From the NCBI GenBank assembly GCA_937926445.1, contig CALBAK010000069.1, forward strand, positions 1 to 64,000: a stretch of 64,000 bases of DNA, read 5' to 3'. Every line of letters begins with the position of its first letter. Within the stretch, counting starts at the first letter, position 1. Origin of the DNA: an uncultured Alphaproteobacteria bacterium (GTDB lineage Bacteria; Pseudomonadota; Alphaproteobacteria; Geminicoccales; Geminicoccaceae). The position numbers and the translations under genes were made by a program. This document shows positions 26,650 to 40,517 of this stretch, one piece after another. The notes beneath the pieces were generated by a model. It saw only the letters and a list, made by a program, of their open reading frames with translations, ran no database searches and had not been told where the DNA came from.

Positions 26650-27822
26650 CTAGCGGTCGCGGCCGAGATGGGCGCGGATGCGGGCGCAGGCCTCCCGGAT
26701 CTGCTCGGTCGAGGCGGCATAGGAGAAGCGGATGTAGCCCTCGCCGAATTTACCGAAGCTCGTGCCGCTCACCACCGCGACACCGACCTTGTCCAGGAGT
26801 TCGTCCTGTAGGGTCCGCGAATCGCGGCCGGTGCCGGTGATGTTCGGGAAGGCGTAGAAGGCCCCGCCCGGCATCGGACAGCGGAAGCCCGGGATGGCGT
26901 TGAGCTCCTCGACGATTACCTTCCGCCGCCGGTCGAACGCCGCGACCATGGCGGCCACCGCCTCCTGGGGGCCCTTGAGGGCCTCGATGCCGGCCCATTG
27001 GGTGGCGGCATTGACGCAGGAATGAGTGTTGATGGCGAGCCGCGTGGCGTGCTCGACCAGCGCCTTCGGCCACACCCCCCAGCCCAGCCGCCACCCCGTC
27101 ATGGCGTAGGTCTTGGACCAGCCGTCGAGCAGGATGAGCCGGTCCTCGAGTTCGGGGTAGGCCGTCATCGAGGCGTGCGGCACGCCGTCGTAGACGATTC
27201 GGGCGTAGATCTCGTCGGACAGCACGACCACCTGCGGGTGGGCCCGCAGCCCGTCGACCAGCCGGTCGAGCTCCTCGCGCGGCACCACGCCACCCGTCGG
27301 GTTGGCCGGGCTGTTGACGATCAGAAGGCGTGTGCGGGGCGTGATCTGCGCCAGCACCTCCTCGGCCGAAAAGGCGTAGCCCTTGGCCTCGTGGAGCGCG
27401 ATCGGCACGGGCTTCGCCCCGGTCCACTCGATCAGCGAGCGGTAGATCGGAAAACCCGGGTCGGGGTACAGGATCTCCGCCCCCGGCTCGCCGAACATGG
27501 CGATCGCCATGAACATGGTGACCTTGCCGCCGGGGACGATGACGATCCGGTCCGGATCGACCTGGACCCCTCGCCGGTTCCACATGTCCTCGGCCACCGC
27601 CTCGCGCAGCGGCCGTATGCCGTTCGCCGGCGTGTAGCCGTGGTGGCCGTCGCGCAGTGCCTTGACTGCCGCCTCGACGATGTTGGGCGGGGTCGGGAAG
27701 TCGGGCTGGCCGATGCCGAGATTGATGATGTCGCGGCCGGCCTCCTCGAGGCGGGTGGCGCGCGCCAGCACCTCGAAGGCGCTCTCGGTGCCGAGACGGG
27801 CCATGCCGGCGGCGAGCTGCAT
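26650..27822 (-). CDS. Class I/II PLP-dependent aminotransferase
   Basis: Fold-type I aminotransferase, 390 residues, similar in layout to aspartate/aromatic/alanine-type transaminases. INLGIGQPDFPTPPNI lies at residues 33-48, VPGGKVTMFMAIAMFG binds cofactor phosphate, and NSPANPTGG holds Asn174. LSDEIYARI holds Asp203 and Tyr206; WSKTYAMTGWRLGW carries the Schiff-base Lys237 and Arg245. The substrate arginine is in EGYIRFSYAAS. ATG 27820-27822 is preceded by GGGGGAGGATCCG. Specificity is not predictable from motifs. It is followed by a VOC-fold gene and divergent from an unknown gene. Confidence 0.92.
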   Translation of the reverse strand: MQLAAGMARLGTESAFEVLARATRLEEAGRDIINLGIGQPDFPTPPNIVEAAVKALRDGHHGYTPANGIRPLREAVAEDMWNRRGVQVDPDRIVIVPGGKVTMFMAIAMFGEPGAEILYPDPGFPIYRSLIEWTGAKPVPIALHEAKGYAFSAEEVLAQITPRTRLLIVNSPANPTGGVVPREELDRLVDGLRAHPQVVVLSDEIYARIVYDGVPHASMTAYPELEDRLILLDGWSKTYAMTGWRLGWGVWPKALVEHATRLAINTHSCVNAATQWAGIEALKGPQEAVAAMVAAFDRRRKVIVEELNAIPGFRCPMPGGAFYAFPNITGTGRDSRTLQDELLDKVGVAVVSGTSFGKFGEGYIRFSYAASTEQIREACARIRAHLGRDR

Positions 27823-27928
27823 CGGATCCTCCCCCGCTGTCGCGGCGGCGGACCTTAGGGGTGGGGCAGGGGCGTGGCAAGGCGGCAACGGTCGGACCCG
27901 CTCCGCCGGAGAGGGGTTCGGGGTGTGC

Positions 27929-27934
27929 TATAAT
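27929..27934 (+). promoter_or_regulatory. Consensus -10 element upstream of the unknown gene
   Basis: A perfect TATAAT, rare in this GC-rich window, lies 20 bases before the ATG at 27955, with a CGGAGGA ribosome-binding site between them. There is no good -35 at 17 bp. If used, the 5' leader is only about a dozen bases. Confidence 0.5.
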
Positions 27935-27954
27935 GTTTTGTCTCGGAGGACACC

Positions 27955-28365
27955 ATGAGCTCGCACCACCGCTTCACCGGCGAGACCGGCCCCGATATCG
28001 GCGCGCGGCTGTTCTTCGCCAGCTGCCCCGACCCCGAGCGCGAGCGCTGCCGCGCGCAGGCCGAGGTGGACGGGGTCCGCTACCTCTATTTCGAGGACGT
28101 CCAGACCATCGGCACGCTGCGCTTGGGCATCCCCCCGGTGATGCGCTTCTTGCAGGTCGTGCTCGTCGTCGGCCCCGACGGTCTGCCCAAGAGGATGGTC
28201 CGACTGGAACATTTCACGCTCTTCGGCACGCAGTGTCTCTGCGTGCTCGAGCGCGACGGCCAACACCTCAATTTCGGTCCGGCCGAGCGCAGCGGCGCCG
28301 AGGAATTCCTCGCTCGGGCGATCGCGCTCGACCGCGAGCTGAACGAGGGACGGGTCGCCATTTGA
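27955..28365 (+). CDS. Conserved-looking protein of unknown function
   Basis: 136 residues that I do not recognise. It starts MSSHHRFTGETGPDIGARLF, has a charged Cys-containing stretch (SCPDPERERCRAQAE), then a beta-rich core with hydrophobic strands (RFLQVVLVVGPDG and HFTLFGTQCLCVLERDG) and an acidic helical C-terminus (AEEFLARAIALDRELNE). No signal peptide or membrane helix. Codon use matches the neighbours, and the good ribosome-binding site and TATAAT support expression. It is divergent from the aminotransferase gene and convergent with the amidase gene, so the neighbourhood gives no strong clue. Probably a small soluble cytoplasmic protein. Confidence 0.72.
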   Translation: MSSHHRFTGETGPDIGARLFFASCPDPERERCRAQAEVDGVRYLYFEDVQTIGTLRLGIPPVMRFLQVVLVVGPDGLPKRMVRLEHFTLFGTQCLCVLERDGQHLNFGPAERSGAEEFLARAIALDRELNEGRVAI

Positions 28366-28411
28366 GCCGCCGCCGCTCGGGCGACGGCCGAGCCGGGTCG
28401 CAGACATCGGT

Positions 28412-29830
28412 TCAGCCGGCGGCGAGCGGCGGCCGGTGCCGTGCCCACGGGCGCGCGCGCTCGAAGGCACGCGCCGCCTGCAGCACCTCGAGATCGCGAT
28501 GGCGCCCGGCCACGATCTGCAGCCCCACCGGCAGGCCTTCGGCCGTGAAGCCGCAGGGGCAGGTCGCGGCCGGCACCCAGGTGAGGTTGAAGGGGTAGGA
28601 GAAACCGGCCCAGCGGTGCCACTCCCAAGGGTGCTGTTCCCAATGCTCGGGGATCAGCCGGCCGGCCGGGAAGGCGGCGATCGAAAGGGTGGGGGTGAGC
28701 AGGAGATCGTAGCGCTCGAAGAGCGCCCGGACCCGGTCGTAGAGCTCGGCCCGCTGTTGCCGCGCGCGCACCCAGTCGGCCGCCGTGTAGCGCAGGCCGT
28801 CTCGGGTCAGCGCCACCAGCCCCGGGTCCATCCGATCGGCCCAGCGGTCCAAGAGCGGGCCGATGTTGCCGGCGTAAGTCGCGCTGTAGAAGCAGCGCTC
28901 CATGGGCCAGGGATCGGGCCAAGGCGACCCTTCGAGCGCCTCGACCGTCGCGCCCAGCTCTTCGAAGACGAGGGCGGCCCGCTCGCAAATCGTGCGGATC
29001 TCGGGATCGATCCGAAGACAACCGAGATCGGCGCTCCAGGCGATCCGCTTGCCCTTCATGTCCGCCTCGAGGCGGGAGAGATAGGGCTCGGGTGCGGCCT
29101 CGAGGCTCGTCGGGTCGCGATCGTCGGGCCCCGCCATCACCTCCATCATGAGGGCGGCGTCGGCCACTGTCCGCGTGATCGGGCCGATGTGCGAGATCAG
29201 GTCGTTGTTCGGCACCGGCCAGTAGGGCACCCGGCCGAAGCTGGGCTTGAAGCCGAACACCCCGCAGAAGGCGGCCGGCATGCGGATCGAGCCCGCGCCG
29301 TCCGAGCCCTGGTGCAGCCAGCCGATGCCGGCGGCCGCGCAGATCGCGGCCCCGGTCGAGGAGCCGCCGGCATTGTAGCCGTGCTTCCAGGGATTGTGGG
29401 AAATCCCCGTCAAGGGGCTGTCGCCGCAGCCCTTCCACCCCAGCTCGGGCACCGTGGTCTTGCCGAGGAACACGGCACCCGCCGCCCGCAGCCGCTCGAC
29501 CACGGGCGCGTCCACGTCCGGCACCCGGTCGGCGAAGATCCAGGAACCGCCCTTGGTCGGGATCCCCTTGGTGAAGAGGAGATCCTTCAAGGTCACGGGC
29601 AGGCCGTGCAGCGGCCGGACGGGTCCGCCGCGGGCGAGCTCGGCCTCGAGCGACTTCGCCTGTGCACGGGCCTGATCGAAGGTGGTGGTGACGAAGGCGT
29701 TGAGCGTCGGCTCGAGGGCCTCCGCCCGGGCGATCGCCAGCTCGACCAGCTCGACCGGGGAGAGTTCGCGCCGGCGCACCAGCGCCAGCACGTCGACGGC
29801 CGGAAGCCAACAGAGATCGGTGGCGGCCAT
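28412..29830 (-). CDS. Amidase-signature family amidohydrolase
   Basis: 472-residue Ser-cisSer-Lys hydrolase that cleaves carboxamides. The catalytic triad is visible: Lys82 in LPVTLKDLLFTKG, cis-Ser157 in NAGGSSTGAA and nucleophile Ser181 in GSDGAGSIRMPA. Then GVFGFKPSFGRVP, and C-terminal FSYPFNLTWVPAATCPCGF with GLPVGLQIVAG complete the family pattern. The length is typical of free amidases; there is no GatB/GatC neighbour, so it is not an obvious GatA. ATG at 29828-29830. It is a lone gene facing a gene-free region upstream. Substrate unknown. Confidence 0.92.
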   Translation of the reverse strand: MAATDLCWLPAVDVLALVRRRELSPVELVELAIARAEALEPTLNAFVTTTFDQARAQAKSLEAELARGGPVRPLHGLPVTLKDLLFTKGIPTKGGSWIFADRVPDVDAPVVERLRAAGAVFLGKTTVPELGWKGCGDSPLTGISHNPWKHGYNAGGSSTGAAICAAAGIGWLHQGSDGAGSIRMPAAFCGVFGFKPSFGRVPYWPVPNNDLISHIGPITRTVADAALMMEVMAGPDDRDPTSLEAAPEPYLSRLEADMKGKRIAWSADLGCLRIDPEIRTICERAALVFEELGATVEALEGSPWPDPWPMERCFYSATYAGNIGPLLDRWADRMDPGLVALTRDGLRYTAADWVRARQQRAELYDRVRALFERYDLLLTPTLSIAAFPAGRLIPEHWEQHPWEWHRWAGFSYPFNLTWVPAATCPCGFTAEGLPVGLQIVAGRHRDLEVLQAARAFERARPWARHRPPLAAG

Positions 29831-30589
29831 CGCCCGGACTCCTGCGGTTGCAGTGCCCCGACCCTAGCCCCGTCGGTCGCGGCTCGGCAGCCCGTTGCCG
29901 TGGCAGCGGCTATGCGTCGAAGGCGGGAAGGCGGGCGCCCGGAAGGTCCGCCGACGCCGGGTCGGCCGCTCCGGACAGCCTCGACCGGCGCGGCCGCGAG
30001 CGAACCGGAACGACCCGGTGGCGCGGATGCGGCAGCGAGCCGACGGGCGCGCGGCGCTCCTCCTCGCGGCCCCCGTCCCGGTGCGGTCGACGGTGCGTCG
30101 CGCCGAGCGATCGCGCCGCGGGTGCGGCGCTGCGCCCGTCGGGACGCGATGGCCGCCGCCGCAAGCCGGGCTCGCACCGATCCGGAGCCGACCCCGTTGC
30201 GGGGCGCGAGTTCCGCGCCGCCGACGGCCGACGTCCTCGGCCGGCACACGGCGACCGACCCGAGCCGAGCAGCGGTGTCGCGGCGGGAACGTCGGCCTTG
30301 GCGCGATCGCGCCATCGCCGGGGAAGCGGTCGGCGGCTCGAGGCCTTTCCCCCGCTCCCGCCTCTTCGCGCCTCGCAGCTCAGGGGTGGCGGCGCTCGCC
30401 GATCGGCACGAAGTGGCCGACGAGGCACCGCCCTGTTCGGCCGGGATCCGATCCGGGGATCGTCCCACCCCGTCGTAGCGAGCCGCCGCGCACGGCCCGG
30501 AGCTTCGCTTTCGCCGCGTCGGTCGCTCTGACCGACCCGTCCCACCGCCGCGACCTCGAGCGCCGTGGCGCCGGTTCCGAGCCAACGTC
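29831..30589. other. Gene-free interval (759 bp)
   Basis: No protein-like frame on either strand; the open frames are arginine/proline/alanine-rich low-complexity translations without ribosome-binding sites. I see no tRNA, hairpin-plus-T terminator or AT-rich promoter island. It separates the amidase start from the 3' end of the enolase-superfamily gene. Confidence 0.55.
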
Positions 30590-31711
30590 TCAGATGCTGC
30601 GGACGAGATATTTCTCGATCAGCACCGGATCGGGCTCGACCCCGAGACCCGGCGTGTCGGGGACGCGGAAGCAGCCGTCCTCGAGCCGGAACGGGTTTCT
30701 CGCGAGTGCCCGGCTGATCTCCGAAGGCTCGACGCAATATTCGAGGATCAGGGCGTTCGGCACCGCCGCCAGGAAGTGGAGCGAGGCCGCGGTGTTGATG
30801 TCGGTCGTGAAATTGTGATTGGCGACCGGGACGCCCTTGGATGCGGCGTAGGCCGCGATCGCGAGCGCCCGGGTCATGCCGCAGCGGGTGAGGTCGATCT
30901 GGGCGAGGCCGATCCCGCCCTCGTCGATCAGGCGCTCGAAGCCCCTGAGCGTGCACTCCTCCTCGCCCGCGGCGAGGCGCTGGTGGATGCGGGCCGCGAC
31001 CCGGCGGTAGCCCTCGAGATCGTCCGGGTGGAGGGGCTCCTCGATCCAGAAGAGATCGAACGGTTCGAAGGCCCGCGCCCGCTGGATCGTGGTCGTGGCG
31101 TCCCACACCAGGCCCACGTCCAACATGAGGTCGAAGTCGGGCCCGGCCGCCTTCCGCATCGCCTCGAGCATCCGCAGATCGAAGGCGAGGTCGGAGCGGC
31201 CGAACGGTTCCCAGCCGAACTTGGCGGCGGTGAAGCCCTGGTCCTTGCACCATTTCACCCGATCGGCGGTGGCCTCGGGCGTGAAGCGGAACATGTTCGA
31301 GGCGTAGACCCGGATCTTGTCGCGGTAGCGGCCGCCCGCCAGGTCCCAGACCGGCCGGCCCAGCGCCTTGCCCTTGATGTCCCAGAGCGCGAGGTCGATG
31401 CCGGCCATGGCGTGGACGAACAGGCCGTCGCGCCCGCAATACAGCGTCGCTTCGTACATCTTTTTCCAGAGTCGGCCGATCTCGAGCGGGTTCTCGCCGA
31501 TCAGGAGCTGGCGCAGGCCGCCCGCGATGGTGTGCGAGACCGGGGCCTCGATCGCCGCCTTGACCGCCCAAGGGCAGGAATCGACCTCGCCCCAGCCGAC
31601 GATGCCGGCATCGGTGGTGACGCGCACGAGGAGCGCGTCCTGGCTCGAATCGGTCCGGGCCTGGATCTGCGGCAGCCGTAGATAGAGTGCTTCGACCTCG
31701 GTGATCTTCAC
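30590..31711 (-). CDS. Mandelate racemase/muconate lactonizing-type enolase-superfamily enzyme
   Basis: 373-residue sugar-acid or hydroxy-acid dehydratase/racemase. The capping domain starts VKITEVEALYLRLPQIQ (GTG 31709-31711, GGAGG seven bases upstream). The barrel has Lys164 in AAKFGWEPFG, metal ligands Asp198 (DVGLVWDA), Glu224 (WIEEPLHPDD) and Glu250/251 (AAGEEEC), Asp273 in QIDLTRCGM and His299 in ANHNFTTDINTAA. The Asp/His dyad marks the mandelate racemase or galactonate/tartrate dehydratase side of the superfamily. No transporter or aldolase partner lies next to it, so the substrate is open. Confidence 0.9.
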   Translation of the reverse strand: MKITEVEALYLRLPQIQARTDSSQDALLVRVTTDAGIVGWGEVDSCPWAVKAAIEAPVSHTIAGGLRQLLIGENPLEIGRLWKKMYEATLYCGRDGLFVHAMAGIDLALWDIKGKALGRPVWDLAGGRYRDKIRVYASNMFRFTPEATADRVKWCKDQGFTAAKFGWEPFGRSDLAFDLRMLEAMRKAAGPDFDLMLDVGLVWDATTTIQRARAFEPFDLFWIEEPLHPDDLEGYRRVAARIHQRLAAGEEECTLRGFERLIDEGGIGLAQIDLTRCGMTRALAIAAYAASKGVPVANHNFTTDINTAASLHFLAAVPNALILEYCVEPSEISRALARNPFRLEDGCFRVPDTPGLGVEPDPVLIEKYLVRSI

Positions 31712-31879
31712 GGTTCCGCCTCCCCTGGCCGCTCCCGAAGAAGCTCCTAGGCAGGCGGCGGGAGGCCGGCAACCGCCGGCGCCGCCGGCCCGGGCATGCG
31801 GGGTCGGGCGGGTCGTGCGGCATCCCGTGGTGCGCGTGCCACGGCGTTCGCTTCGACGGCCGCCGTTCGTGACCACTTC

Positions 31880-31909
31880 TTTACTTCTGCCTGCTGATCG
31901 ATCTAGGGT
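31880..31909 (+). promoter_or_regulatory. Possible promoter of the small membrane-protein gene
   Basis: TTTACT, 18 bases, TAGGGT within an AT-rich island (about 31868-31919) that stands out from the surrounding GC-rich sequence. A start near 31917 would give a leader consisting of the 31920-31951 hairpin plus the ribosome-binding site. The match to consensus is weak. Confidence 0.3.
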
Positions 31910-31912
31910 TCG

Positions 31913-31951
31913 AAAAAAAGGGGTCGCCCGTCTGCTTGCCCCAGCGACCCC
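31913..31951 (-). terminator. Stem plus T7 on the minus strand; leader hairpin on the plus strand
   Basis: GGGGTCGC (31920-31927) pairs perfectly with GCGACCCC (31944-31951). Read on the minus strand the stem is followed by seven T, the form of a Rho-independent terminator, yet no minus-strand gene ends here. Read on the plus strand it is a 5' leader stem just before the small membrane-protein start. Confidence 0.55.
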
Positions 31952-31961
31952 CGGAGCCTGC

Positions 31962-32123
31962 GTGCCCATGCCGTCGATCGACCAGCCGTCGTCCGCCGAG
32001 AGCCTCGCCCGTCCGAGCGAGGCGGCCCCGGAGCCCGAGGTGTTCGGCGTGCTCGGACCCGTGCTCGTGGCGACTTTCCTGCTCTGGATCGCGGTCGTGG
32101 CGGCGGTCGGCAGCTCGGTCTGA
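31962..32123 (+). CDS. Candidate small single-span membrane protein
   Basis: 53 residues from GTG 31962 (CGGAG six bases upstream), or 51 from ATG 31968. An acidic, Pro/Ser-rich N-terminus (SIDQPSSAESLARPSEAAPEP) is followed by one hydrophobic helix, GVLGPVLVATFLLWIAVVAA, and the protein stops at VGSSV. The sharp switch from polar to hydrophobic residues is unlike the arginine-rich noise frames of this region. A signal-anchor or tail-anchored topology is likely. No family recognised; small subunits of respiratory complexes are one possibility, but no such genes are nearby. Confidence 0.5.
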   Translation: MPMPSIDQPSSAESLARPSEAAPEPEVFGVLGPVLVATFLLWIAVVAAVGSSV

Positions 32124-33572
32124 GCCGCGACTTCCGCGACCGCTTCCAGCGCCCCCGGTACGGGCGGGCCGACGGCAGCAGCTCGGTCCGCGACCGGGTC
32201 GCGCCCGTGCCCGTGTGCTGCGGCCGGCGGTCGGAGGCTCGCTCCCACCTGCGCATTCCAAGATCGGGCCGGCTCGTCCCGGTACCGACGCGGCGAAAGC
32301 GGGCAGCTCACGCGCCGCCGCCTTTCGGACCCGCCCGGACGCCCGCGCCGAGTCCGCCGCCGAGAGGCTCGATCGGTCGGATCGCCTCGACCGCCGGCAG
32401 GCGTCTGCGCACCCGAAAGCGCTCCCGGTCGGCTCTCGCCGGCGGCCGGCGGAGGGTTTGCGGCCACACTCGCGAGGTCGCGTCTTCGGCCGATCTCTCG
32501 AGGTCCTCGTGCCCGTCCGGACGCGCCCACGGATGCCCGGCTGCGCCGGCCGGAGGCGTGCGACCGGCGACCCCCCGGTCGCTCGCCCTCGCACAGCTGT
32601 GCCGATGGACGAGGCGACGGCCGAGCGCGTCCAGCCTGCGGCCCGGCGCTCGATTCCTCGGACCGGCCCGCCTCCCGGACCCCGCGAGCCCGACCGGCGA
32701 TCGGAAACCGACCTCGTCTCCGGCGTCGGCGAGCCGGTCGGGTCGACCGCCGAGCAGGCTGCGCGGTTCGCTGGCTCCACGAGCGGCCTGCGGCCGAGAC
32801 CGGGGTGGACGTGGCTGCCGACGGGGCCGATGCGCTGGGTCGGGGGACCGGAACACCGACGCCGGAGCGAGCTCGTCGGACCGATCGCCGTGCCGCGCAC
32901 CGAGACGGGACGGCTCGCGGCCGCTCGCGCCGTTCGGCCGAACCCGCGCCCGGATCGGGCAGGACCGCCTCGGCTGCCGCGCGCTGCGAACGCCTCGCGC
33001 CTCGGCTCGAGTCGTCGCGTCACTCTCTCGTGCCGGGAACTCCCTGCCGTCGCCGGAGCGCCCGGCGGCGCTCCGTTCGCGCTCGGGATACGCGCGAAAA
33101 GGTGAAGATCGCGTGAACGGCACGGGTCGGGGCGGCCGTCTCGCAGCGGTCCTCCCCATTTCTGCCGCCGTTCGAGAGCGTCTCCTCGTTCCCTCTGCCT
33201 GCCGGTCGATTCTTGACGGTCGCTTTCGATCTCGAGGGGGGCCGCGCTCTGCTCGGTCGACCCGGCGCCCTGCGGCCGCCGCCGGCGACGGCTGCGCCGG
33301 GCGCGCCTGTCCGGCGTTGCGACCGGGTCACGGGAGCGGCCGAAGTCCGACCCGCTTCGGCCGGCGCGAGCGAGGGCGAGGCGCCCGCGAAAGCCGAGCT
33401 CGCAGCGACGAGAAGCGACGCAGAGTTCGGGCGCTCGCCGCGGCACCGGGAGCACGATCGGCCCGTCCTTCGCGCTCGGCCGACACCCCGTGTCCGACGT
33501 CGGCGGTTCGCTCGGGGTGTCGAGGAGCGCGAGCGGGCCGCCGACGAACGGATCGCGCCCGAGTGAAAGCAA
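32124..33572. other. Gene-free interval (1.45 kb)
   Basis: The longest non-coding stretch in the window. All frames on both strands give low-complexity Arg/Pro/Ala/Gly translations with no family motifs and no proper ribosome-binding sites. A TTGACG at 33213 has no -10 partner. I see no tRNA, insertion-sequence ends or repeats. An unannotated small RNA cannot be excluded. Confidence 0.5.
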
Positions 33573-34724
33573 TCAGGCGACCGCACCTCGCCCTTCGATC
33601 GGCCAGACCGCCTCCACGGTGTCGCCGCGGACGCACACCAGATGGTCCCACAAGTTCACCGTCGGGTCGCAATGCGGGGCGATACAGCGCACGAGCGTGC
33701 CGACGCGCAGGCGCTCGCTGCCCGGCGGCAGGTCGATTCGGCCGAACTGGTCGCCGAACATCGAGTAGATCGAGCCGGGCGGAGCGCCCGCGGCAACGAC
33801 GGGTGCGGGGCCGTCGGTGGCGAAGCTTTTCGAGCCGGCATCGGTCGTGACGAAGCCGGGGTGCCGGTTGCTCACGACCCGCGTCCAGACGAAGAGGGCG
33901 GGCCGGAAGCGCTCGGTCTCGTCGCCGGTCAGGTCGCAGGCGAGATAGTCCACGTCCATGAACGGGTAGGATCCGACCTGGAGCTCGCTGAACACGCCGA
34001 GCCGCGCGTCCGGATCGTGTGTGCCCGTGCCGGAGCCGGTGACGATCCGGCAGGGGAGGCCGGCCTCGCCGAACGCGTCGCGGATCCGGGCGAGCTGCGC
34101 GTTGACCGACCGGGTCGCGACCTCGCGCTCGCGATAATCGCGGATGTGCTGGATTCGCCCGGCATAGCCCTGGATGCCCACGAGCTCGAGGGAGGGCAGG
34201 GAAGCGACCAGCCGGCCGAGCGCCAGGGCGTCCTCGAGCGAGGGCGCGCCGAAACGGTGCGAGCCCACGTCGACGACGACGAGCACGCGAAGGCGCTTCC
34301 CGGCGCCGTCCGTGGCGGCGGCGAGCTCGTGCACATTGTCCGGATCGTCGACCACGATCAGGAGCTCGCGCAACCGCGCATGGAGCGCGAGCAGACGACC
34401 GACCTTGCTCTCGCCCGTCACCGGGGCGGTGAGGAGGAGGCCGTCGATGCCCCCGCGCGCGAGCGCCTCGGCCTCGCCGAGCTTGGCGCAGCAGAAGCCC
34501 ACGACCTCCCCCGCCTCGAGCTGGCGGCGGGCCACGGTCACGCTCTTGTGGGTCTTGGCATGCGGCCGCAGCTTCACCCCGCGCGCCCGGGCGAACGCGG
34601 CCATGGCCGCGAGATTGGCCTCGAAGGCGTCGAGATCGAGGACGAGAGCAGGGGTGTCGAGCCGGATCGCCCCACCCGGCACCCCCACGAGCTTCTCGTT
34701 CCAGGCGAGGCTCTCCGGGTTCAT
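33573..34724 (-). CDS. D-threonine aldolase / D-serine dehydratase-like PLP enzyme
   Basis: Fold-type III (alanine-racemase-like barrel) enzyme, 383 residues, acting on D-hydroxy-amino acids with PLP and a divalent metal. The Schiff-base lysine is Lys57 in RPHAKTHKS. VVVDVGSHRFGA and IVTGSGTGTHDPDARLG bind cofactor, and GYAGRIQHIRDYRER is typical. The C-terminal metal site is His351-Cys-Asp353 in APHCDPTVNLWDH; the His-x-Asp spacing favours D-threonine aldolase over D-serine dehydratase, though a cysteine is also present. ATG 34722-34724 with AGGAGG upstream. It stands alone between two long non-coding stretches. Confidence 0.88.
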   Translation of the reverse strand: MNPESLAWNEKLVGVPGGAIRLDTPALVLDLDAFEANLAAMAAFARARGVKLRPHAKTHKSVTVARRQLEAGEVVGFCCAKLGEAEALARGGIDGLLLTAPVTGESKVGRLLALHARLRELLIVVDDPDNVHELAAATDGAGKRLRVLVVVDVGSHRFGAPSLEDALALGRLVASLPSLELVGIQGYAGRIQHIRDYREREVATRSVNAQLARIRDAFGEAGLPCRIVTGSGTGTHDPDARLGVFSELQVGSYPFMDVDYLACDLTGDETERFRPALFVWTRVVSNRHPGFVTTDAGSKSFATDGPAPVVAAGAPPGSIYSMFGDQFGRIDLPPGSERLRVGTLVRCIAPHCDPTVNLWDHLVCVRGDTVEAVWPIEGRGAVA

Positions 34725-35579
34725 CTTCGTCCCTCCTGCCGCGAGCTCTTCCCTCCTGCCGCCGGCTTCCCGGCCCGGCCGAGCCATTCGAGCGCGTCCG
34801 GCCGAAGGCCACCATCCTCCGCCCGGCGATTCCAGCTCTTCGACCCTCGCATCGTGTCGTCGCGTCACGCTCGCATGCTCGGTGCTCCGTGCCGATGCCC
34901 GACTGCCCGCCGGCGTCCCGTTCGCCTACGCGGAGGATGCACCCGGAAATCTCGAGAAAGTGTTGACAATCTCGACCTCCGCGGTCTCCGCGCGATGGCG
35001 CCGTCGGGTCTCCTCCCCGCTCGTCGACGGCTCGGCGTCCGAGCCGACCGCCGAACGGCTACGGACCCGCGCTCCATGTCCGGAGCCAGCGGGCGATCCG
35101 GGGCACCGCGGCCGCCGCGGAATTCGCTGCCCCATCGGCCGGCCGAACGCGCTGGCGTGCCTCTGAAGGGTTAACGCTTTCTTCACCGCTTCCCGGCATT
35201 CTGGCCTCGCCGGACGGCTGTCGCCGGGCAGCAAAGGTTCGGCCCAGCTTCGCCGGCGGACCCGAGGTTCGGCTCGAAGGACCGAGACTTCAAGCGTTCG
35301 ATGTCCGAGATCTCCTCGGCTCGACGGCAGGGCCGGCCGTGCCTCGATCACGCTCGAGTGCGCGCGGTCTTTCGCGCAGACCGTTCCCCGGGCGGCGCGC
35401 CCCGTCGGTGGCGTCCTCTCGGCCTGTACCCCGCTCGGCGGTATCGCGTGATCGAACCCGGTCGAATCCGCGGCGGCCCGCCCGTGCGGCCCGCCGATGG
35501 CGACCCCGGCCTCGGCGACGCTCGGGATACCGGCCACCAGCGCCCCGCACTCGCCGCGATCGTGCCCGAGCCGACCGGC
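34725..35579. other. Gene-free interval (855 bp) with a repeat-bearing AT-richer patch
   Basis: No credible coding frame. At 34948-34975 the octamer AATCTCGA occurs twice in direct orientation 20 bp apart, the first being part of the palindrome TCTCGAGA; a TTGACA lies between the copies but has no -10. A GTTAAC-containing patch occurs near 35170. The repeats could be a regulator site for the minus-strand aldolase-like gene about 230 bases away. Confidence 0.45.
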
Positions 35580-37901
35580 CTAAGCCGAAGATCGCTCGGG
35601 CCCCGCTCGATCGCGCGCGTCGCGAATGGCCCGCCAGACCCTCTCGGGATTGAGCGGCGGGTCGAGCCGATCGACGCCCAGGGGCCGCAAGGCGTCGCGC
35701 ACCGCCGCCAGGACCGCCGCCGGCGCGCCGTTGCTCGGGAGCTCGCCCAGGCCCTTCACGCCGAGCGGATTGCGGGTCGAGGGCGTGCCCAGAAAGGCGA
35801 GGTCGACGGCCGGCACATCGGCCGCGCGCGGGATCGCGTAGTCGAGGAGCGAGCCGGTCAGGAGCTGGCCGCTCGTCGGCTCGTAGACGATCCGCTCGAA
35901 GAGCGCCTCGCCGATCCCGGCTGCGACGCCGCCCTGGACCTGACCCGCCGCGAGCACCGGGTCGAGCACCCGGCCGATGTCGAGGGCGGTCGCGACCCGC
36001 ACCACCCGGACGAGTCCGGTCTCGGGGTCGACCTCGACCTCGGCCACGGTCACACCGGCGGGCCAGGTCTGGACCGGGTCGACCGAAGGCTGCTCGACGA
36101 GCAGCGGAGTGCCGCTGGCTGCCGCTTGCCGGGCGAGTTCGGCGAAGCCGACCCGCCGGTCGGTCCCGGCGACCAGGACCGCGGCGTCCTCGAGGCGGAG
36201 GTCGGCCGGCGCCGCCTCGAGCAGCTCGGCCGCGAGCATCCGGATCCGCTCGGCGAGCGCCGCGGAACCGCGATGGAGGCTCGCACCACTCACCACCATC
36301 GAAGAGGAGCCGCCCGTCCCGGGCCCGCTCGGGGAGAGGTCGGTGTCGCCCTGGCGGATCCGCACCCGCTCGGGCGAAAGGCCGAGCCGGCCCGCGACGA
36401 TGCGAGCGAGCACCGTGGCGTGGCCCTGGCCCGTGCTCCTTGTTCCGGTCCGGGCCTCGACGGTGCCGTCTTCGAGGAGCTCGAGCCGGGCGCACTCGCC
36501 CTGCAGCGCCCCGGTCGGGTGCAGATGGCAGGCGACGCCGAAGCCGAGCAAGCGGCCGCGAGCCCGGGCCTCGGCCCGCCGGCGGGGGCGGCCTTCCGGG
36601 TCGGCGAGGGCCAGGGCGCGCTCGAGGAGCGCCGGGGCGTCGAACGGCTCGTAGTCGTGGCCGAGCGGCGTGGTCCAGGGAAAATCTTCGGGACGCAAGA
36701 GGTTCCGCCGGCGGAGTGCCACCGGATCGAGGCCGAGCTCGTGGGCCGCCCGGTCTACCGCGGCCTCGAGCAGCGCGAACGTCTCGGGCTTGCCCGCACC
36801 CCGGATCGCATCGACCGGGGCCGTGTTCGTGTAGGCGCAGCGGACCCGCACGGCGATCGCCGGGATCCGGTAGAGACCCGAGATCACGCGGGAGAGGCCG
36901 GTCGTGGGGACGATCGCGGCGAGGCTCGAGAGCCAGGCGCCGAGACCCGCCACGGCGTCCACTCGAAGCGCCAGGAAGCGGCCCTGGCCGTCGAGGGCGA
37001 GCTCGAGCGCGGCATCGAGGTCGCGGGCCCGGGCATCGGCCGAGAAGTGCTCGGCCCGCTCGGCGGCCCAGCGGACCGGCCGGCCGAGCCGGCGGGCCGC
37101 CCAGGCGACGAGCGCGGTCTCGGGATAGGCCGGGAATTTCGGGCCGAAGCCGCCGCCCACGTCCTCGGTGATCACGCGAAGGCTCGAAGGTTCCCAACCG
37201 AGTGCGGCGAGTAGGAGTTTCTTCTGCAGATGCGGGCCCTGGCTCGTCACCGCGAGCGTGGTCCGCCGAGCCGCCGGCTCGTGCACGGCCCAGGCGGCCC
37301 GCGGTTCGAGGTACACGGCGGCGAGGCCGGCGGTGCGGTTCTCGACCCGTACGATCCGCGCGGCGCGGGCGAAAGCCGCCTCGACTGCGGCCGGATCGCC
37401 CTGCCGCCAGTCGATCGCGAGATTGCCCGGCACCTCGGGGTGGAGCTCGGCCGCACCCGGGGCGAGGGCCGCGCGCGGCTCGACGACCGCGGGGAGCGGC
37501 TCGAGCTCGACCGCGATCGCCTCGAGCGCGTCGCGGGCGAGCGCGTCGCTTTCGGCGACGACCAGGGCCAGAGCCTCGCCCGCATGGCGGACCCGGTCGC
37601 GGGCCAGAAGCGGTCGCGGCGGCTCGCGCAAGGGCCGACCCGCGGCATCCACGAGCCGGGCCTCGGCCGGGAGGGGTCCCAGTCCCGCCGCATCCAGTTC
37701 GGCCGCGGTCGCGACCAGCGCCACCCCGGGCAGGGCACGGGCAGCCCTCGTTTCGATCGCGCGGATCCGGGCGTGCGCGTGCTGGGCGCGCAGGAAGCGG
37801 GCGACGAACGCGCCCGCGGGCGCCGTGTCGTCGGTGAAACGGCCCCGGCCTTCGAGCAGCCGCCCGTCTTCGAGCCGCCGCCCCGGCGCGTCGCCCGCCA
37901 T
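35580..37901 (-). CDS. Orphan molybdenum hydroxylase large subunit (CoxL/XdhB-like)
   Basis: 773-residue molybdopterin-cytosine-dinucleotide-binding subunit of the xanthine dehydrogenase/CO dehydrogenase/aldehyde oxidase family. N-terminal RRLEDGRLLEGRGRFTDD; DVGGGFGPKF and IRGAGKPETFALLEAAVD (normally A-Y-R-G-A-G-R-P-E) bind the cofactor; RSTGQGHATVLARIVA is canonical; GVKGLGELPSNGAPAA holds the catalytic Glu. The CODH loop with its cysteine (A-Y-x-C-S-F-R) is absent, so it is not a CO dehydrogenase. No FAD (medium) or 2Fe-2S (small) subunit lies nearby. ATG 37899-37901 with GGAGG sits only 19 bases after the tRNA-Thr 3' end on the same strand. Confidence 0.88.
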   Translation of the reverse strand: MAGDAPGRRLEDGRLLEGRGRFTDDTAPAGAFVARFLRAQHAHARIRAIETRAARALPGVALVATAAELDAAGLGPLPAEARLVDAAGRPLREPPRPLLARDRVRHAGEALALVVAESDALARDALEAIAVELEPLPAVVEPRAALAPGAAELHPEVPGNLAIDWRQGDPAAVEAAFARAARIVRVENRTAGLAAVYLEPRAAWAVHEPAARRTTLAVTSQGPHLQKKLLLAALGWEPSSLRVITEDVGGGFGPKFPAYPETALVAWAARRLGRPVRWAAERAEHFSADARARDLDAALELALDGQGRFLALRVDAVAGLGAWLSSLAAIVPTTGLSRVISGLYRIPAIAVRVRCAYTNTAPVDAIRGAGKPETFALLEAAVDRAAHELGLDPVALRRRNLLRPEDFPWTTPLGHDYEPFDAPALLERALALADPEGRPRRRAEARARGRLLGFGVACHLHPTGALQGECARLELLEDGTVEARTGTRSTGQGHATVLARIVAGRLGLSPERVRIRQGDTDLSPSGPGTGGSSSMVVSGASLHRGSAALAERIRMLAAELLEAAPADLRLEDAAVLVAGTDRRVGFAELARQAAASGTPLLVEQPSVDPVQTWPAGVTVAEVEVDPETGLVRVVRVATALDIGRVLDPVLAAGQVQGGVAAGIGEALFERIVYEPTSGQLLTGSLLDYAIPRAADVPAVDLAFLGTPSTRNPLGVKGLGELPSNGAPAAVLAAVRDALRPLGVDRLDPPLNPERVWRAIRDARDRAGPERSSA

Positions 37902-37920
37902 CGCCGTCCTCCCGCCGGTC

Positions 37921-37995
37921 TGGTGCCGGCGGAGGGGATCGAACCCCCGACCTCCCGCTTACAAGGCGGATGCTCTACCGCTGAGCTACGCCGGC
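37921..37995 (-). tRNA. tRNA-Thr(UGU)
   Basis: Cloverleaf folds completely: 7-bp acceptor GCCGGCG/CGCCGGC, D-arm GCTC/GAGC, anticodon stem TCCGC/GCGGG with loop CTTGTAA (anticodon TGT at 37961-37963), T-arm with TTCGATC, and an encoded CCA. 75 nt in total. It is 11 bases downstream of rlmB and 19 bases upstream of the CoxL-like start. Confidence 0.95.
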
Positions 37996-38006
37996 CGCCG
38001 CCGAGC

Positions 38007-38777
38007 CTAGGGACGGGGCAGGCCCCGGGCAAGGAGATAGAGGGCGATGCCGGCGGCGACCGCGACATTCAGGCTCGCCATGCGCGGGGCGGTGGCGAGC
38101 TTCGCCACGAGGTCGCAATGCTCGACCACGAGCCGGCGCAGGCCCTTCTCCTCCGAGCCCAGCACGAGCGCCCGGCGCGGCCGGAAGGGCAGGGCCTCGA
38201 CCGGTGGCTCGGCCCGCGCCTCGAGCCCCACGATCCAGAAGCCCGCGCGCTTCAGGGCCTCGAGTGCCTGGACCAGGTTGGCGACTTCGACGATCGGGAC
38301 CATGTCGAGGGCGCCGCAGGCGGCCTTGGCGCAGGCGGGACCGAGGGGTGCCGAGCGGCGCTCGGGAACGATCACGCCGGCCACGTCGAGGGCGGCCGCA
38401 CTCCTCAGGATCGCCCCGAGGTTGCGCGGGTCCTGGATCCGGTCGAGGACGAGGACCAGGGCCTCCGCGCCCAGGCCGGCCAGGAGCGATTCGAGCGAGC
38501 GGTCCGGCAACGGGCCCACCAGGAGCGCGCAGCCCTGATGAACCACGTCCGGCGGCAGGAACCGAGCGAGCTCGGCCGGGGCGACCCGCTCGACGAGGAG
38601 CCCGGGCCGCTCGACGAGCCGGCCGAGACGTTCGAGCGCGGGGCCGGTGGCGAGCAGCCGGCGGCAGGGTCGCAAGGGGTTGTCGAGGGCGGCGGCGACC
38701 GCGTGGTGGCCATAGAACCAGAGCCCCTCGGGCGGGGCCGGGCGACGGTCCGGCGAGGTAGTGGGCGGGTCGTACAA
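38007..38777 (-). CDS. rlmB: 23S rRNA (guanosine-2'-O)-methyltransferase RlmB / TrmH family
   Basis: SPOUT-class enzyme that methylates the ribose of a 23S rRNA guanosine (G2251 in E. coli). The N-terminal L30e-like RNA-binding domain (LWFYGHHAVAAALDNP) is followed by the knotted domain with LVLDRIQDPRNLGAILRSAAALDV, ALVLGSEEKGLRRLVVEHCD and the terminal ASLNVAVAAGIALYLLARG, the three SpoU motifs. The start is uncertain: no ATG fits. TTG at 38775-38777 (256 residues) is the best choice, because an earlier start would run through the promoter of the divergent tRNA genes. Its position beside tRNA-Tyr is conserved in alphaproteobacteria. Confidence 0.9.
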   Translation of the reverse strand: MYDPPTTSPDRRPAPPEGLWFYGHHAVAAALDNPLRPCRRLLATGPALERLGRLVERPGLLVERVAPAELARFLPPDVVHQGCALLVGPLPDRSLESLLAGLGAEALVLVLDRIQDPRNLGAILRSAAALDVAGVIVPERRSAPLGPACAKAACGALDMVPIVEVANLVQALEALKRAGFWIVGLEARAEPPVEALPFRPRRALVLGSEEKGLRRLVVEHCDLVAKLATAPRMASLNVAVAAGIALYLLARGLPRP

Positions 38778-38814
38778 ACTGGTCTCGGGCTGAAGGGCGG
38801 GGCCGGCATAGCGA

Positions 38815-38843
38815 TTGACAAGGCCGCGGGAAAGCCCATATCT
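38815..38843 (+). promoter_or_regulatory. Promoter of the tRNA-Tyr/Gly/Trp-secE unit
   Basis: TTGACA (38815-38820), 17 bases, ATATCT (38838-38843), 27 bases before tRNA-Tyr. Perfect -35 with optimal spacing and the one AT-rich patch here. Confidence 0.7.
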
Positions 38844-38869
38844 CGCCCGGCCTCGAGCCGGGGACCGCT

Positions 38870-38955
38870 GGAGGGGTGGCCGAGCGGTCAAAGGCAGCAG
38901 ACTGTAAATCTGCCGACGAACGTCTACGTAGGTTCGAATCCTACCCCCTCCACCA
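38870..38955 (+). tRNA. tRNA-Tyr(GUA)
   Basis: 86 nt with encoded CCA. Acceptor GGAGGGG/CCCCTCC, anticodon loop CTGTAAA with GTA at 38904-38906, and the long class II variable arm (CCGACGAACGTCTACG region) expected of tRNA-Tyr. TTCGAAT T-loop. Confidence 0.96.
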
Positions 38956-38962
38956 CGGCCGG

Positions 38963-39036
<74 letters not shown>

Positions 39037-39150
39037 CTCTGTCGAAGAGCTCTTGCGCGGCCGGCAGGTCTGGCCTAAGGAGGCGCTCCGGGCGGTGGAC
39101 GAGGGTCCGCGGCACGCTGCTGTTCGACCGCGTCCGGGCGCGCCGGGTAG

Positions 39151-39226
39151 AGGAGTGTAGCTCAACTGGCAGAGCACCGGTCTCCAAAACCGGGGGTTGG
39201 GGGTTCGAGCCCCTCCACTCCTGCCA
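39151..39226 (+). tRNA. tRNA-Trp(CCA)
   Basis: 76 nt with encoded CCA. Acceptor AGGAGTG/CACTCCT, anticodon stem CCGGT/ACCGG, loop CTCCAAA with CCA at 39184-39186, T-loop TTCGAGC. The 114 bases before it, where many relatives carry a tuf copy, hold no gene. secE follows 64 bases later. Confidence 0.96.
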
Positions 39227-39290
39227 CCCGGACCGGATCCCGGCACGCCAGCTAGGAAGCGATCTCCGCCCGAGCTCGGGTCGAAGGACG

Positions 39291-39488
39291 ATGGCGAAGA
39301 CGTCGCCGGCGCAGTTCGTTCGCGAGGTGCGCCAAGAGCTGCAGAAGGTAACCTGGCCCTCCCGCAAGGAGCTGGTCGCCACCACTTTGAGCGTGGTGGC
39401 GATGTCGGCCCTGGCCGCGCTCTTCTTCTTCCTGGTCGACCAGGTGCTCGCCTGGTTCGTGCAGCTCGCGCTCGGGATCGGTCGCTGA
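39291..39488 (+). CDS. secE: Preprotein translocase subunit SecE
   Basis: Single-span clamp of the SecYEG channel in the inner membrane. 65 residues, the short form usual outside enterobacteria. The amphipathic helix FVREVRQELQKVTWPSRKEL, with the conserved V-x-W-P, precedes one transmembrane helix (ALAALFFFLVDQVLAWFVQLA). Its TGA overlaps the nusG ATG (TGATG), so the pair is translationally coupled. A GTCGAAGGACG leader provides the ribosome-binding site. Confidence 0.96.
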   Translation: MAKTSPAQFVREVRQELQKVTWPSRKELVATTLSVVAMSALAALFFFLVDQVLAWFVQLALGIGR

Positions 39489-40018
39489 TGGCCAAGCGCT
39501 GGTACATCATCCACGTCTATTCGGGCTTCGAGAAGAAGGTCCGTGACGCGCTGCGGGAGCAGGCCCAGCGGAAAGGTCTTTCTCACTATTTCGACGAGAT
39601 CCTCGTGCCGATGGAGGAAGTGGTCGAGGTCCATCGCGGCAAGAAGGTGCCGACCGAGCGCAAGTTCTTCCCGGGCTACGTGCTCGTTAAGATGGAGCTC
39701 AACGACGAGACCTGGTCGCTGGTGCGCAACACCGGCAAGGTGACAGGCTTCCTCGGGCCGGGCGGCAAGCCCGCGCCGATCCCCGACGCCGAGGCCGAGC
39801 GGATCATCCACCAGGTGGCCGAGGTCAAGGAGCACCCCAAGCCCACGATCAGCTTCGTGCCGGGCGACCAGGTGCGGGTCGCCGAGGGGCCGTTCGCCTC
39901 CTTCAGCGGCACGGTCGAGGAGGTCGACGAGGCCAAGGGGCGGCTCAAGGTACTGGTCTCGATTTTCGGCCGGGCGACCCCGGTCGAGCTCGAATATTCG
40001 CAGGTGGAGCGGACCTGA
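39488..40018 (+). CDS. nusG: Transcription termination/antitermination factor NusG
   Basis: Binds the RNA polymerase clamp, suppresses pausing and links to Rho or ribosomal S10. 176 residues. The NGN domain starts MAKRWYIIHVYSGFEKKVRDAL and includes KFFPGYVLVKMEL and TGKVTGFLG. A linker leads to the KOW domain, VPGDQVRVAEGPFASFSGTVEEVD, ending VELEYSQVERT. The length matches E. coli-type NusG without an insertion. The start overlaps the secE stop. Confidence 0.97.
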   Translation: MAKRWYIIHVYSGFEKKVRDALREQAQRKGLSHYFDEILVPMEEVVEVHRGKKVPTERKFFPGYVLVKMELNDETWSLVRNTGKVTGFLGPGGKPAPIPDAEAERIIHQVAEVKEHPKPTISFVPGDQVRVAEGPFASFSGTVEEVDEAKGRLKVLVSIFGRATPVELEYSQVERT

Positions 40019-40085
40019 CGCCGCTCGCTCGTAGCGGGAGCGCCCGGCTCGGGCGCGCACGAACCGCGCAGGAGGAGAAGGCCGG

Positions 40086-40517
40086 ATGGCCAAGAAGGTC
40101 GTGGGCTACATCAAGCTGCAGGTGCCGGCCGGCAAGGCCAACCCGTCGCCGCCCATCGGGCCGGCGCTGGGTCAGCGCGGCCTCAACATCATGCAGTTCT
40201 GCAAGGAGTTCAACGCCGCCACGCAGGGTCTCGAGCCGGGCATGCCGATCCCGGTCGTGATCACGGCCTATGCCGATCGGACCTTCAGCTTCACGACCCG
40301 CACGCCGCCCGCCTCCTACTATCTGAAGAAGGCGGCGGGGCTCGAGAAGGGCAGCCAGCAGCCGGGCAAGGCGGCGCCGGTTGGCAAGGTCACGATGGCG
40401 CAGATCCGCGAGATCGCCCAGGCCAAGATGAAGGACCTCAATGCGGTCGATCTCGAGGGAGCGGTCGAGATGATCAAGGGTTCGGCGCGCTCAATGGGCC
40501 TGCAGGTGGTGGAGTGA
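40086..40517 (+). CDS. rplK: 50S ribosomal protein L11
   Basis: Forms the GTPase-associated centre stalk base with 23S rRNA helices 43-44; needed for RelA-dependent (p)ppGpp synthesis. 143 residues. [25 protein letters not shown] is the signature thiostrepton-loop region (unaltered prolines), followed by the RNA-binding C-domain with [32 protein letters not shown] lies just upstream of ATG 40086. It is four bases from rplA. Confidence 0.97.

What the first reader, a model, noticed from the sequence alone, without database searches (positions are those of the whole stretch)
31880..32123. Small membrane-protein gene with a leader hairpin that doubles as a minus-strand terminator
An AT-rich island, a perfect 8-bp stem (31920-31927/31944-31951), a T7 run in minus orientation, and a 51-53 codon frame with one clean transmembrane helix lie together inside a gene-poor stretch. 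On the minus strand the stem plus T7 would end a transcript that has no annotated gene, so an unannotated minus-strand RNA in 31952-33572 is possible.
Basis: partly seen in the sequence, partly recalled or inferred. Interest (0 to 1): 0.5.

Follow-up and report, generated by a model that had tools for sequence, protein, structure and literature searches.

The report
Conserved small membrane-protein gene, hairpin leader
The sequence holds a real, so far unnamed gene for a 51-53 residue one-helix membrane protein with a conserved promoter-like region and RNA hairpin in front of it; the hairpin could also end transcription on the other strand, but no separate hidden RNA is needed to explain it.

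Summary
The 51-53 codon frame at 31962/31968-32123 is a genuine gene: found at the same place in 6 of 6 genomes of its genus (Geminicoccaceae) and in 10 of 31 family genomes, under purifying selection (dN/dS 0.06-0.33 in 15 pairs), encoding one C-terminal helix with the invariant pattern ExFGxxGPxLxxxFxLW. It fits no Pfam or NCBIfam family. The AT-rich island is a conserved promoter-like stretch (CTTTAC, 18 nt, [CG]TA) ending in the window's only A6+ run. The hairpin recurs in all six; in three it needs U-G pairs that exist only in plus-strand RNA, so a plus-strand leader fits better than a minus-strand terminator. A terminator-like form on the minus strand passes a fixed rule in 3 of 6. Its natural client is the convergent D-serine-dehydratase-like gene, whose stop lies 9-36 nt from the small gene's stop in 5 of 5 relatives; here a 1449-nt non-coding spacer parts them. 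An unannotated conserved minus-strand RNA is not supported. An orphan small-protein family, otherwise of a known kind.

The parts
31879..31884 (+). CTTTAC, invariant in 6 of 6 genomes of the genus; probable -35 element
   Evidence: alignments; the consensus scan found no sigma-70 site, so the label is inference from conservation and spacing
31903..31905 (+). [CG]TA, always 18 nt after CTTTAC; probable core of the -10 element
   Evidence: sequences
31913..31919 (+). A7 tract; probable first bases of the mRNA; read on the minus strand it is the T-tract of a terminator-like site
   Evidence: only A6+/T6+ run in the window; an A-rich tract (A4 to A7) lies at this place in 6 of 6
31920..31951 (+). 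leader hairpin, 8-bp perfect stem, 16-nt loop
   Evidence: stem at the homologous place in 6 of 6 (6 to 10 pairs); three depend on U-G pairs of the plus-strand RNA
31920..31951 (-). the same stem as a terminator-like site on the minus strand, followed by T7
   Evidence: a fixed terminator rule is met in W, G001 and G005, not in G004, G002, G003
31935..31942 (+). CTTGCCCC in the hairpin loop, conserved (one C to T change in G002)
   Evidence: a pattern built on it is found once per genome, at this locus, in 5 of 6 genomes
31953..31956 (+). GGAG, probable ribosome-binding site, 5 nt before GTG and 11 nt before ATG
   Evidence: GGAGCCTGCGTG invariant in 6 of 6
31962..32123 (+). small membrane-protein gene; GTG start 31962 (53 codons) or ATG start 31968 (51 codons); stop TGA
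32040..32117 (+). single helix, residues 25-50, presumably membrane-spanning
   Evidence: AlphaFold2 model, hydropathy
32124..33572 (.). non-coding, 76% G+C spacer present only in this genome between the two convergent genes
   Evidence: gap 1449 nt here, 9-36 nt in 5 relatives; no periodicity; no homologue in the genus
33573..34724 (-). D-serine-dehydratase-like gene (Ala_racemase_N + D-ser_dehydrat), convergent with the small gene
   Evidence: Pfam; synteny
30590..31711 (-). enolase-superfamily (mandelate racemase/muconate lactonizing) gene, divergent from the small gene
   Evidence: Pfam; synteny

Best explanation
31879-32123 is a short, vertically inherited, single-gene transcription unit. 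Inferred: RNA polymerase starts near the A-tract, the mRNA begins with A-rich bases and folds a hairpin that ends 1 nt before the ribosome-binding site, and translation from GTG 31962 or ATG 31968 makes a 51-53 residue protein with a variable, acidic N-terminal tail and one membrane helix. The hairpin most likely works in the plus-strand mRNA, protecting its 5' end and keeping the ribosome-binding site open. The protein is probably a small accessory or regulatory partner of a larger membrane protein, touching it through the invariant boundary motif ExFGxxGPxL and the helix face with F and W. On the opposite strand the stem plus T-tract can stop transcripts running in from the convergent D-serine-dehydratase-like gene, as a secondary or lineage-dependent use. 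Shown: conservation, coding selection, synteny, recurrence of the stem and strand bias of its wobble pairs. Not shown: transcription, translation, membrane location, partner.
For: Protein found in 6 of 6 genus genomes and 10 of 31 family genomes. Same neighbours in 6 of 6: enolase-superfamily gene (-), small gene (+), D-serine-dehydratase-like gene (-) (in G003 the caller missed the small gene itself, which searches place there). dN/dS 0.064-0.326 in 15 of 15 pairs over the last 29 residues; W against each of 5 relatives: 9-13 third-position changes, 1-5 first, 1-3 second. Twelve invariant residues in 10 sequences. Leader more conserved than the DNA before it: 44 of 95 W bases invariant in 31876-31970 against 19 of 133 in 31743-31875. 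Stem at the homologous place in 6 of 6 (8, 6, 10, 8, 9, 10 pairs with U-G allowed); G001, G002 and G003 each need a U-G at a different position, which would be A-C on the minus strand. Leader pattern occurs once per genome, at this locus, in 5 of 6. Helix 25-50.
Against: The -35/-10 labels rest on conservation only: the consensus scan found no promoter in 29500-35500. The 6-bp stem of G004 is matched or beaten in 335 of 500 shuffles, W's in 25, G005's in 43. RNAfold gives other plus-strand folds for G004 and G005, and a longer minus-strand stem for G004. The A-tract beside the stem is not explained by a plus-strand role. Only six genomes carry the leader. The function of the protein is inferred from size and topology alone: no Pfam, NCBIfam or solved-structure relative, and its neighbours outside the genus differ.
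Confidence: 0.68

Rival explanations
1. The hairpin is mainly an intrinsic terminator on the minus strand that ends the mRNA of the D-serine-dehydratase-like gene after it has crossed the small gene in antisense, and shields the enolase-superfamily gene; its place in the small gene's leader is incidental.
For: GC-rich stem plus T7 in the window, the only A6+/T6+ run in 64 kb. Rule met at this place in 3 of 6 genomes, while shuffled regions give 0.03-0.13 hits each. No other terminator-like site on either strand between the two neighbours in any of 6. In 5 of 5 relatives only 9-36 nt separate the convergent stops. G004's minus fold is strong.
Against: Rule not met in 3 of 6. In G001, G002 and G003 the stem holds A-C mismatches on the minus strand. 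Loops of 14-20 nt are long for a terminator. Sequence conservation continues through the ribosome-binding site, which a terminator would not need.
Confidence: 0.2
2. Type I toxin-antitoxin pair: the small hydrophobic peptide is a membrane toxin and a minus-strand RNA ending at the leader hairpin is its antisense antitoxin.
For: Size, single helix, structured leader abutting the ribosome-binding site, possible antisense terminator. The defining features of such pairs are recalled, not taken from a call.
Against: Fixed locus with the same neighbours in 6 of 6 genus genomes; no hit in 72,556 plasmid or 50,697 phage records or in viral contigs; an antisense gene in the spacer cannot be conserved because relatives lack the spacer. 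The PADLOC library was not searched.
Confidence: 0.06
3. The hairpin is a regulatory switch (for example a temperature- or ligand-responsive leader) controlling access to the ribosome-binding site.
For: Hairpin ends 1 nt before GGAG; the CTTGCCCC loop and GGAGCCTGCGTG are unusually constant.
Against: The ribosome-binding site is outside the homologous stem in all six; no Rfam family; the leader pattern is not reused elsewhere in five genomes.
Confidence: 0.1
4. Chance frame and chance hairpin in a GC-rich gap.
For: Eight-bp stems are common here (61 against 56 expected) and long open frames abound in the spacer.
Against: Conservation, coding-type substitution pattern and fixed synteny.
Confidence: 0.01

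Closest known systems
Small single-pass membrane regulators of bacteria (for example MgrB, which acts on PhoQ; PMC10576120, start of abstract seen in a search listing)
   Same: About 50 residues, one membrane helix, probable role as accessory partner of a larger membrane protein (inferred; MgrB's size is recalled)
   Different: No sequence relation shown; restricted to Geminicoccaceae in these searches; partner unknown
Excludon / overlapping convergent transcription (review PMC7154746, abstract and section 1.3 read)
   Same: Convergent genes whose stops lie 9-36 nt apart with no terminator-like site between them in 5 relatives
   Different: No transcript data; in the window a 1449-nt spacer parts the two genes
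mscL-arfA of E. coli (PMC10070815, passages seen)
   Same: A membrane-protein gene and a convergent gene end to end, where 3' overlap gives antisense control
   Different: Other proteins; there the 3' ends overlap, here the possible terminator sits at the 5' leader of the small gene, so overlap would cover the whole gene
Bidirectional transcription terminators (Ju et al. 2019, seen only as a reference-list entry in PMC10070815)
   Same: One palindrome lying where transcripts of both strands meet
   Different: Here the plus-strand side has no T-tract, so it is not expected to terminate in that direction

Membership tests
Protein-coding small ORF | Conserved in relatives with fewer amino-acid than silent changes | tested here: met
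   6 of 6 genus, 10 of 31 family; dN/dS 0.064-0.326, 15 of 15 pairs
Protein-coding small ORF | Translated in the cell | not testable with these tools
   no ribosome profiling or proteomics at hand
Single-pass membrane protein | One hydrophobic helix long enough to span a membrane | tested here: met
   helix 25-50, hydropathy 2.48; membrane location itself not tested
Known Pfam or NCBIfam family | Score above the curated cut-off | tested here: not met
   NCBIfam: 0 of 10 members match at E up to 1; Pfam: only DUF3099, in 2 of 10, best E 0.12; 11.8 bits against a cut-off of 23.2 for the window's member
Intrinsic terminator on the minus strand | GC-rich stem directly followed by a T-rich tract | tested here: inconclusive
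   met in W, G001, G005; not in G004, G002, G003
Intrinsic terminator on the minus strand | Stem kept by base changes that pair on that strand | tested here: not met
   U-G pairs of the plus strand in G001, G002, G003 are A-C on the minus strand
Type I toxin-antitoxin | Antisense RNA gene opposite the toxin gene | tested here: inconclusive
   terminator-like site only; no promoter evidence; relatives lack the spacer
Type I toxin-antitoxin | Peptide toxic when overexpressed | not testable with these tools
   needs an experiment
Excludon | Transcripts of the two genes overlap and affect each other | not testable with these tools
   needs strand-specific RNA-seq; only the arrangement is known
Known structured RNA | Match to an Rfam model | tested here: not met
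   27800-40100 searched at E up to 5: only tRNAs and sub-threshold hits at the tRNA genes

The most novel reading that the evidence does not exclude
One hairpin serves both strands of a convergent pair: it is the 5' leader of the small membrane-protein mRNA and the 3' end of the D-serine-dehydratase-like mRNA, whose 3' untranslated part would then be antisense to the whole small gene. The two genes would be expressed reciprocally in the relatives, and the 1449-nt spacer would have loosened that link in this species.
Probability: 0.18. Interest if true: 0.5.

Novelty: new member of a known kind. Interest (0 to 1): 0.32.

Why it matters
It adds an orphan family of small membrane proteins to a poorly studied alphaproteobacterial family, with a gene structure clear enough to test, and it gives a natural series (gaps of 9-36 nt in five relatives, 1449 nt in one) for asking whether convergent neighbours regulate each other through overlapping transcripts. 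It also shows that reading a stem plus a T-run from one sequence is not enough: comparison across six genomes points to the other strand.

Tried and rejected
Spacer 32124-33572 as a hidden gene: no codon periodicity (0.79/0.76/0.74 G+C by phase, against 0.91/0.50/0.74 in the neighbouring D-serine-dehydratase-like gene), and open frames no longer than order-2 random sequence gives; no Pfam family above cut-off. Its stop triplets are fewer than order-1 random sequence gives (7 against 17.7 on average), which I could not explain beyond composition. Spacer as a decayed copy of the D-serine-dehydratase-like gene: local alignment not above shuffles with one scoring scheme (198 against a maximum of 229 in 30), above them with the other (66 against a maximum of 58.5), probably because of the 81-bp block; tblastn of the called proteins gave only weak hits to this spacer in the part of the output I could see (it was cut), so unproven.

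The small gene as part of an aminotransferase operon: it lies just before that gene only in G010 and G021; 26 of 31 family genomes have the aminotransferase at the limit used, and among those 26 loci (up to about 1.5 kb flanks) only these two carry the motif. Relatives outside the family: one weak 15-residue match in 385 class genomes, taken as chance. Relatives in viral contigs, plasmids and phages: none. Solved structures: nothing below E 0.09. No paper search was made for this protein family itself, so I do not claim that it is absent from print.

A first alignment left loci on the minus strand unturned and was discarded; one search replaces it. My gene caller is a simple codon-usage script; some start sites it gives are doubtful, and it did not call the small gene in G003 and G018.

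Full report
What is there. The window is part of a 3.71-Mb, 120-contig genome. Its nearest named relatives are Geminicoccaceae: contig lengths and positions tie G005 to KatS3mg117 (AP024683), G004 to HOT.CON.139, G002 to SKYG96, G001 to SKYB19, G003 to SRBZ.bins.76, G015 to Marinimicrococcus flavescens, G021 and G010 to HKST-UBA13 and HKST-UBA14. That the genus lives in hot springs is my inference from isolate names.

Chance. Perfect 8-bp stems with loops of 3-20 nt number 61 in the window and 56 on average in 20 order-2 shuffles, so the stem alone is nothing. The A7 is the only A or T run of six or more in 64 kb, and the pair of stem and run appeared in 0 of 20 shuffles.

The gene. The peptide has matches at E below 1e-3 in 10 of the 60 genomes searched: all 6 of the genus and 4 others (33 of 60 pass the loose limit of 1, mostly fragments inside long frames). 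A profile gives 10 of 31 family genomes, the same ten, and 4 of 385 class genomes, three of them of the genus and one a weak 15-residue match. The last 29 residues are nearly fixed in the genus while the N-terminal tail drifts; across ten sequences E24, F26, G27, G30, P31, L33, F37, L39, W40, A46 and V51 never change besides the start. Silent changes dominate: dN/dS 0.064-0.326 in 15 of 15 pairs. AlphaFold2 gives one confident helix, residues 25-50, and a low-confidence tail. No Pfam or NCBIfam family fits. Both GTG 31962 and ATG 31968 are kept in 6 of 6; GGAG stands 5 nt before GTG and 11 before ATG, which favours GTG slightly.

The leader. In 6 of 6 genomes CTTTAC is followed after exactly 18 nt by [CG]TA, then an A-rich tract, the stem, CTTG[CT]CCC and GGAGCCTGCGTGnnnATG. 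Of W bases, 44 of 95 are invariant in 31876-31970 against 19 of 133 in 31743-31875. The pattern of loop, 3' arm and GGAGCC is found once per genome, at this locus, in 5 of 6 genomes; G002 misses the pattern, and the only control hit, with the pattern reversed, was one in G002. So it is a private leader, not a repeated element.

Which strand. Allowing U-G, the stem has 8, 6, 10, 8, 9 and 10 pairs in W, G004, G001, G005, G002 and G003. Counting Watson-Crick pairs only, the longest stem falls to 6, 4 and 5 in G001, G002 and G003, whose stems each hold a U-G pair at a different position; on the minus strand those are A-C mismatches. Against shuffles the stems are reached in 25, 335, 8, 43, 17 and 3 of 500, so G004 contributes nothing. 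G004 also has a strong minus-strand fold, and RNAfold prefers other plus-strand folds for G004 and G005. On the minus strand W, G004 and G005 gain pairs (10, 13 and 10) by wobbles of their own. The balance favours a structure that works in the plus-strand mRNA, at moderate strength on six sequences.

The minus-strand terminator. With a fixed rule (six or more pairs, loop up to 20, T-rich tail) the site passes in W, G001 and G005 and fails in G004, G002 and G003. No other site on either strand passes between the flanking genes in any of the six; shuffled regions give 0.03-0.13 hits each, and the whole window has 11 such sites, 7 plus and 4 minus. In the five relatives the D-serine-dehydratase-like stop is 9, 13, 16, 18 or 36 nt from the small gene's stop, so a transcript from that gene would have to cross the small gene before reaching this hairpin. 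That makes its mRNA the natural client and removes the need for an unannotated RNA. This remains inference.

The spacer. 32124-33572 exists only in this genome among the six. It is 76% G+C, shows no codon periodicity and has no counterpart in the genus beyond short scattered matches. It holds an 81-bp block 77% identical to 34845-34925, which lies just before the D-serine-dehydratase-like gene, so a partial local duplication may have contributed. An assembly fault cannot be excluded.

Compared with what is known. It works like other small single-pass membrane proteins, but no family membership could be shown. The gene pair resembles the convergent arrangements discussed as excludons (PMC7154746, abstract and section 1.3 read) and the mscL-arfA pair (PMC10070815, passages seen), but there is no transcript evidence here.

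Verdict. Observation confirmed; interpretation partly supported. A real, conserved orphan gene of a known kind, with a leader hairpin on the sense strand and an optional terminator use on the other strand.

Noticed in passing
33000-33080 and 34845-34925: 81-bp block repeated at 77% identity, once inside the spacer and once just upstream of the D-serine-dehydratase-like gene; possible trace of a partial duplication.
   Followed up: partly
29831-30589, 32124-33572, 34725-35579: Long gaps between genes are richer in G+C (0.78, 0.76, 0.72) than the called genes (0.69), opposite to what I recall as usual; few TA and stop triplets.
   Followed up: partly
31859-31902 and 33164-33210: Two short near-repeats almost in register (GCCGCCGTTCG..., CTCTGCCTGC...) link the small gene's promoter region with a stretch inside the spacer.
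   Followed up: no
34725-35579: In G004, G005 and G002 the place of this gap is taken by called genes (131 and 236, 419, and 426 residues, some with calcium-binding-repeat-like sequence by eye); the window, G001 and G003 lack them.
   Followed up: no
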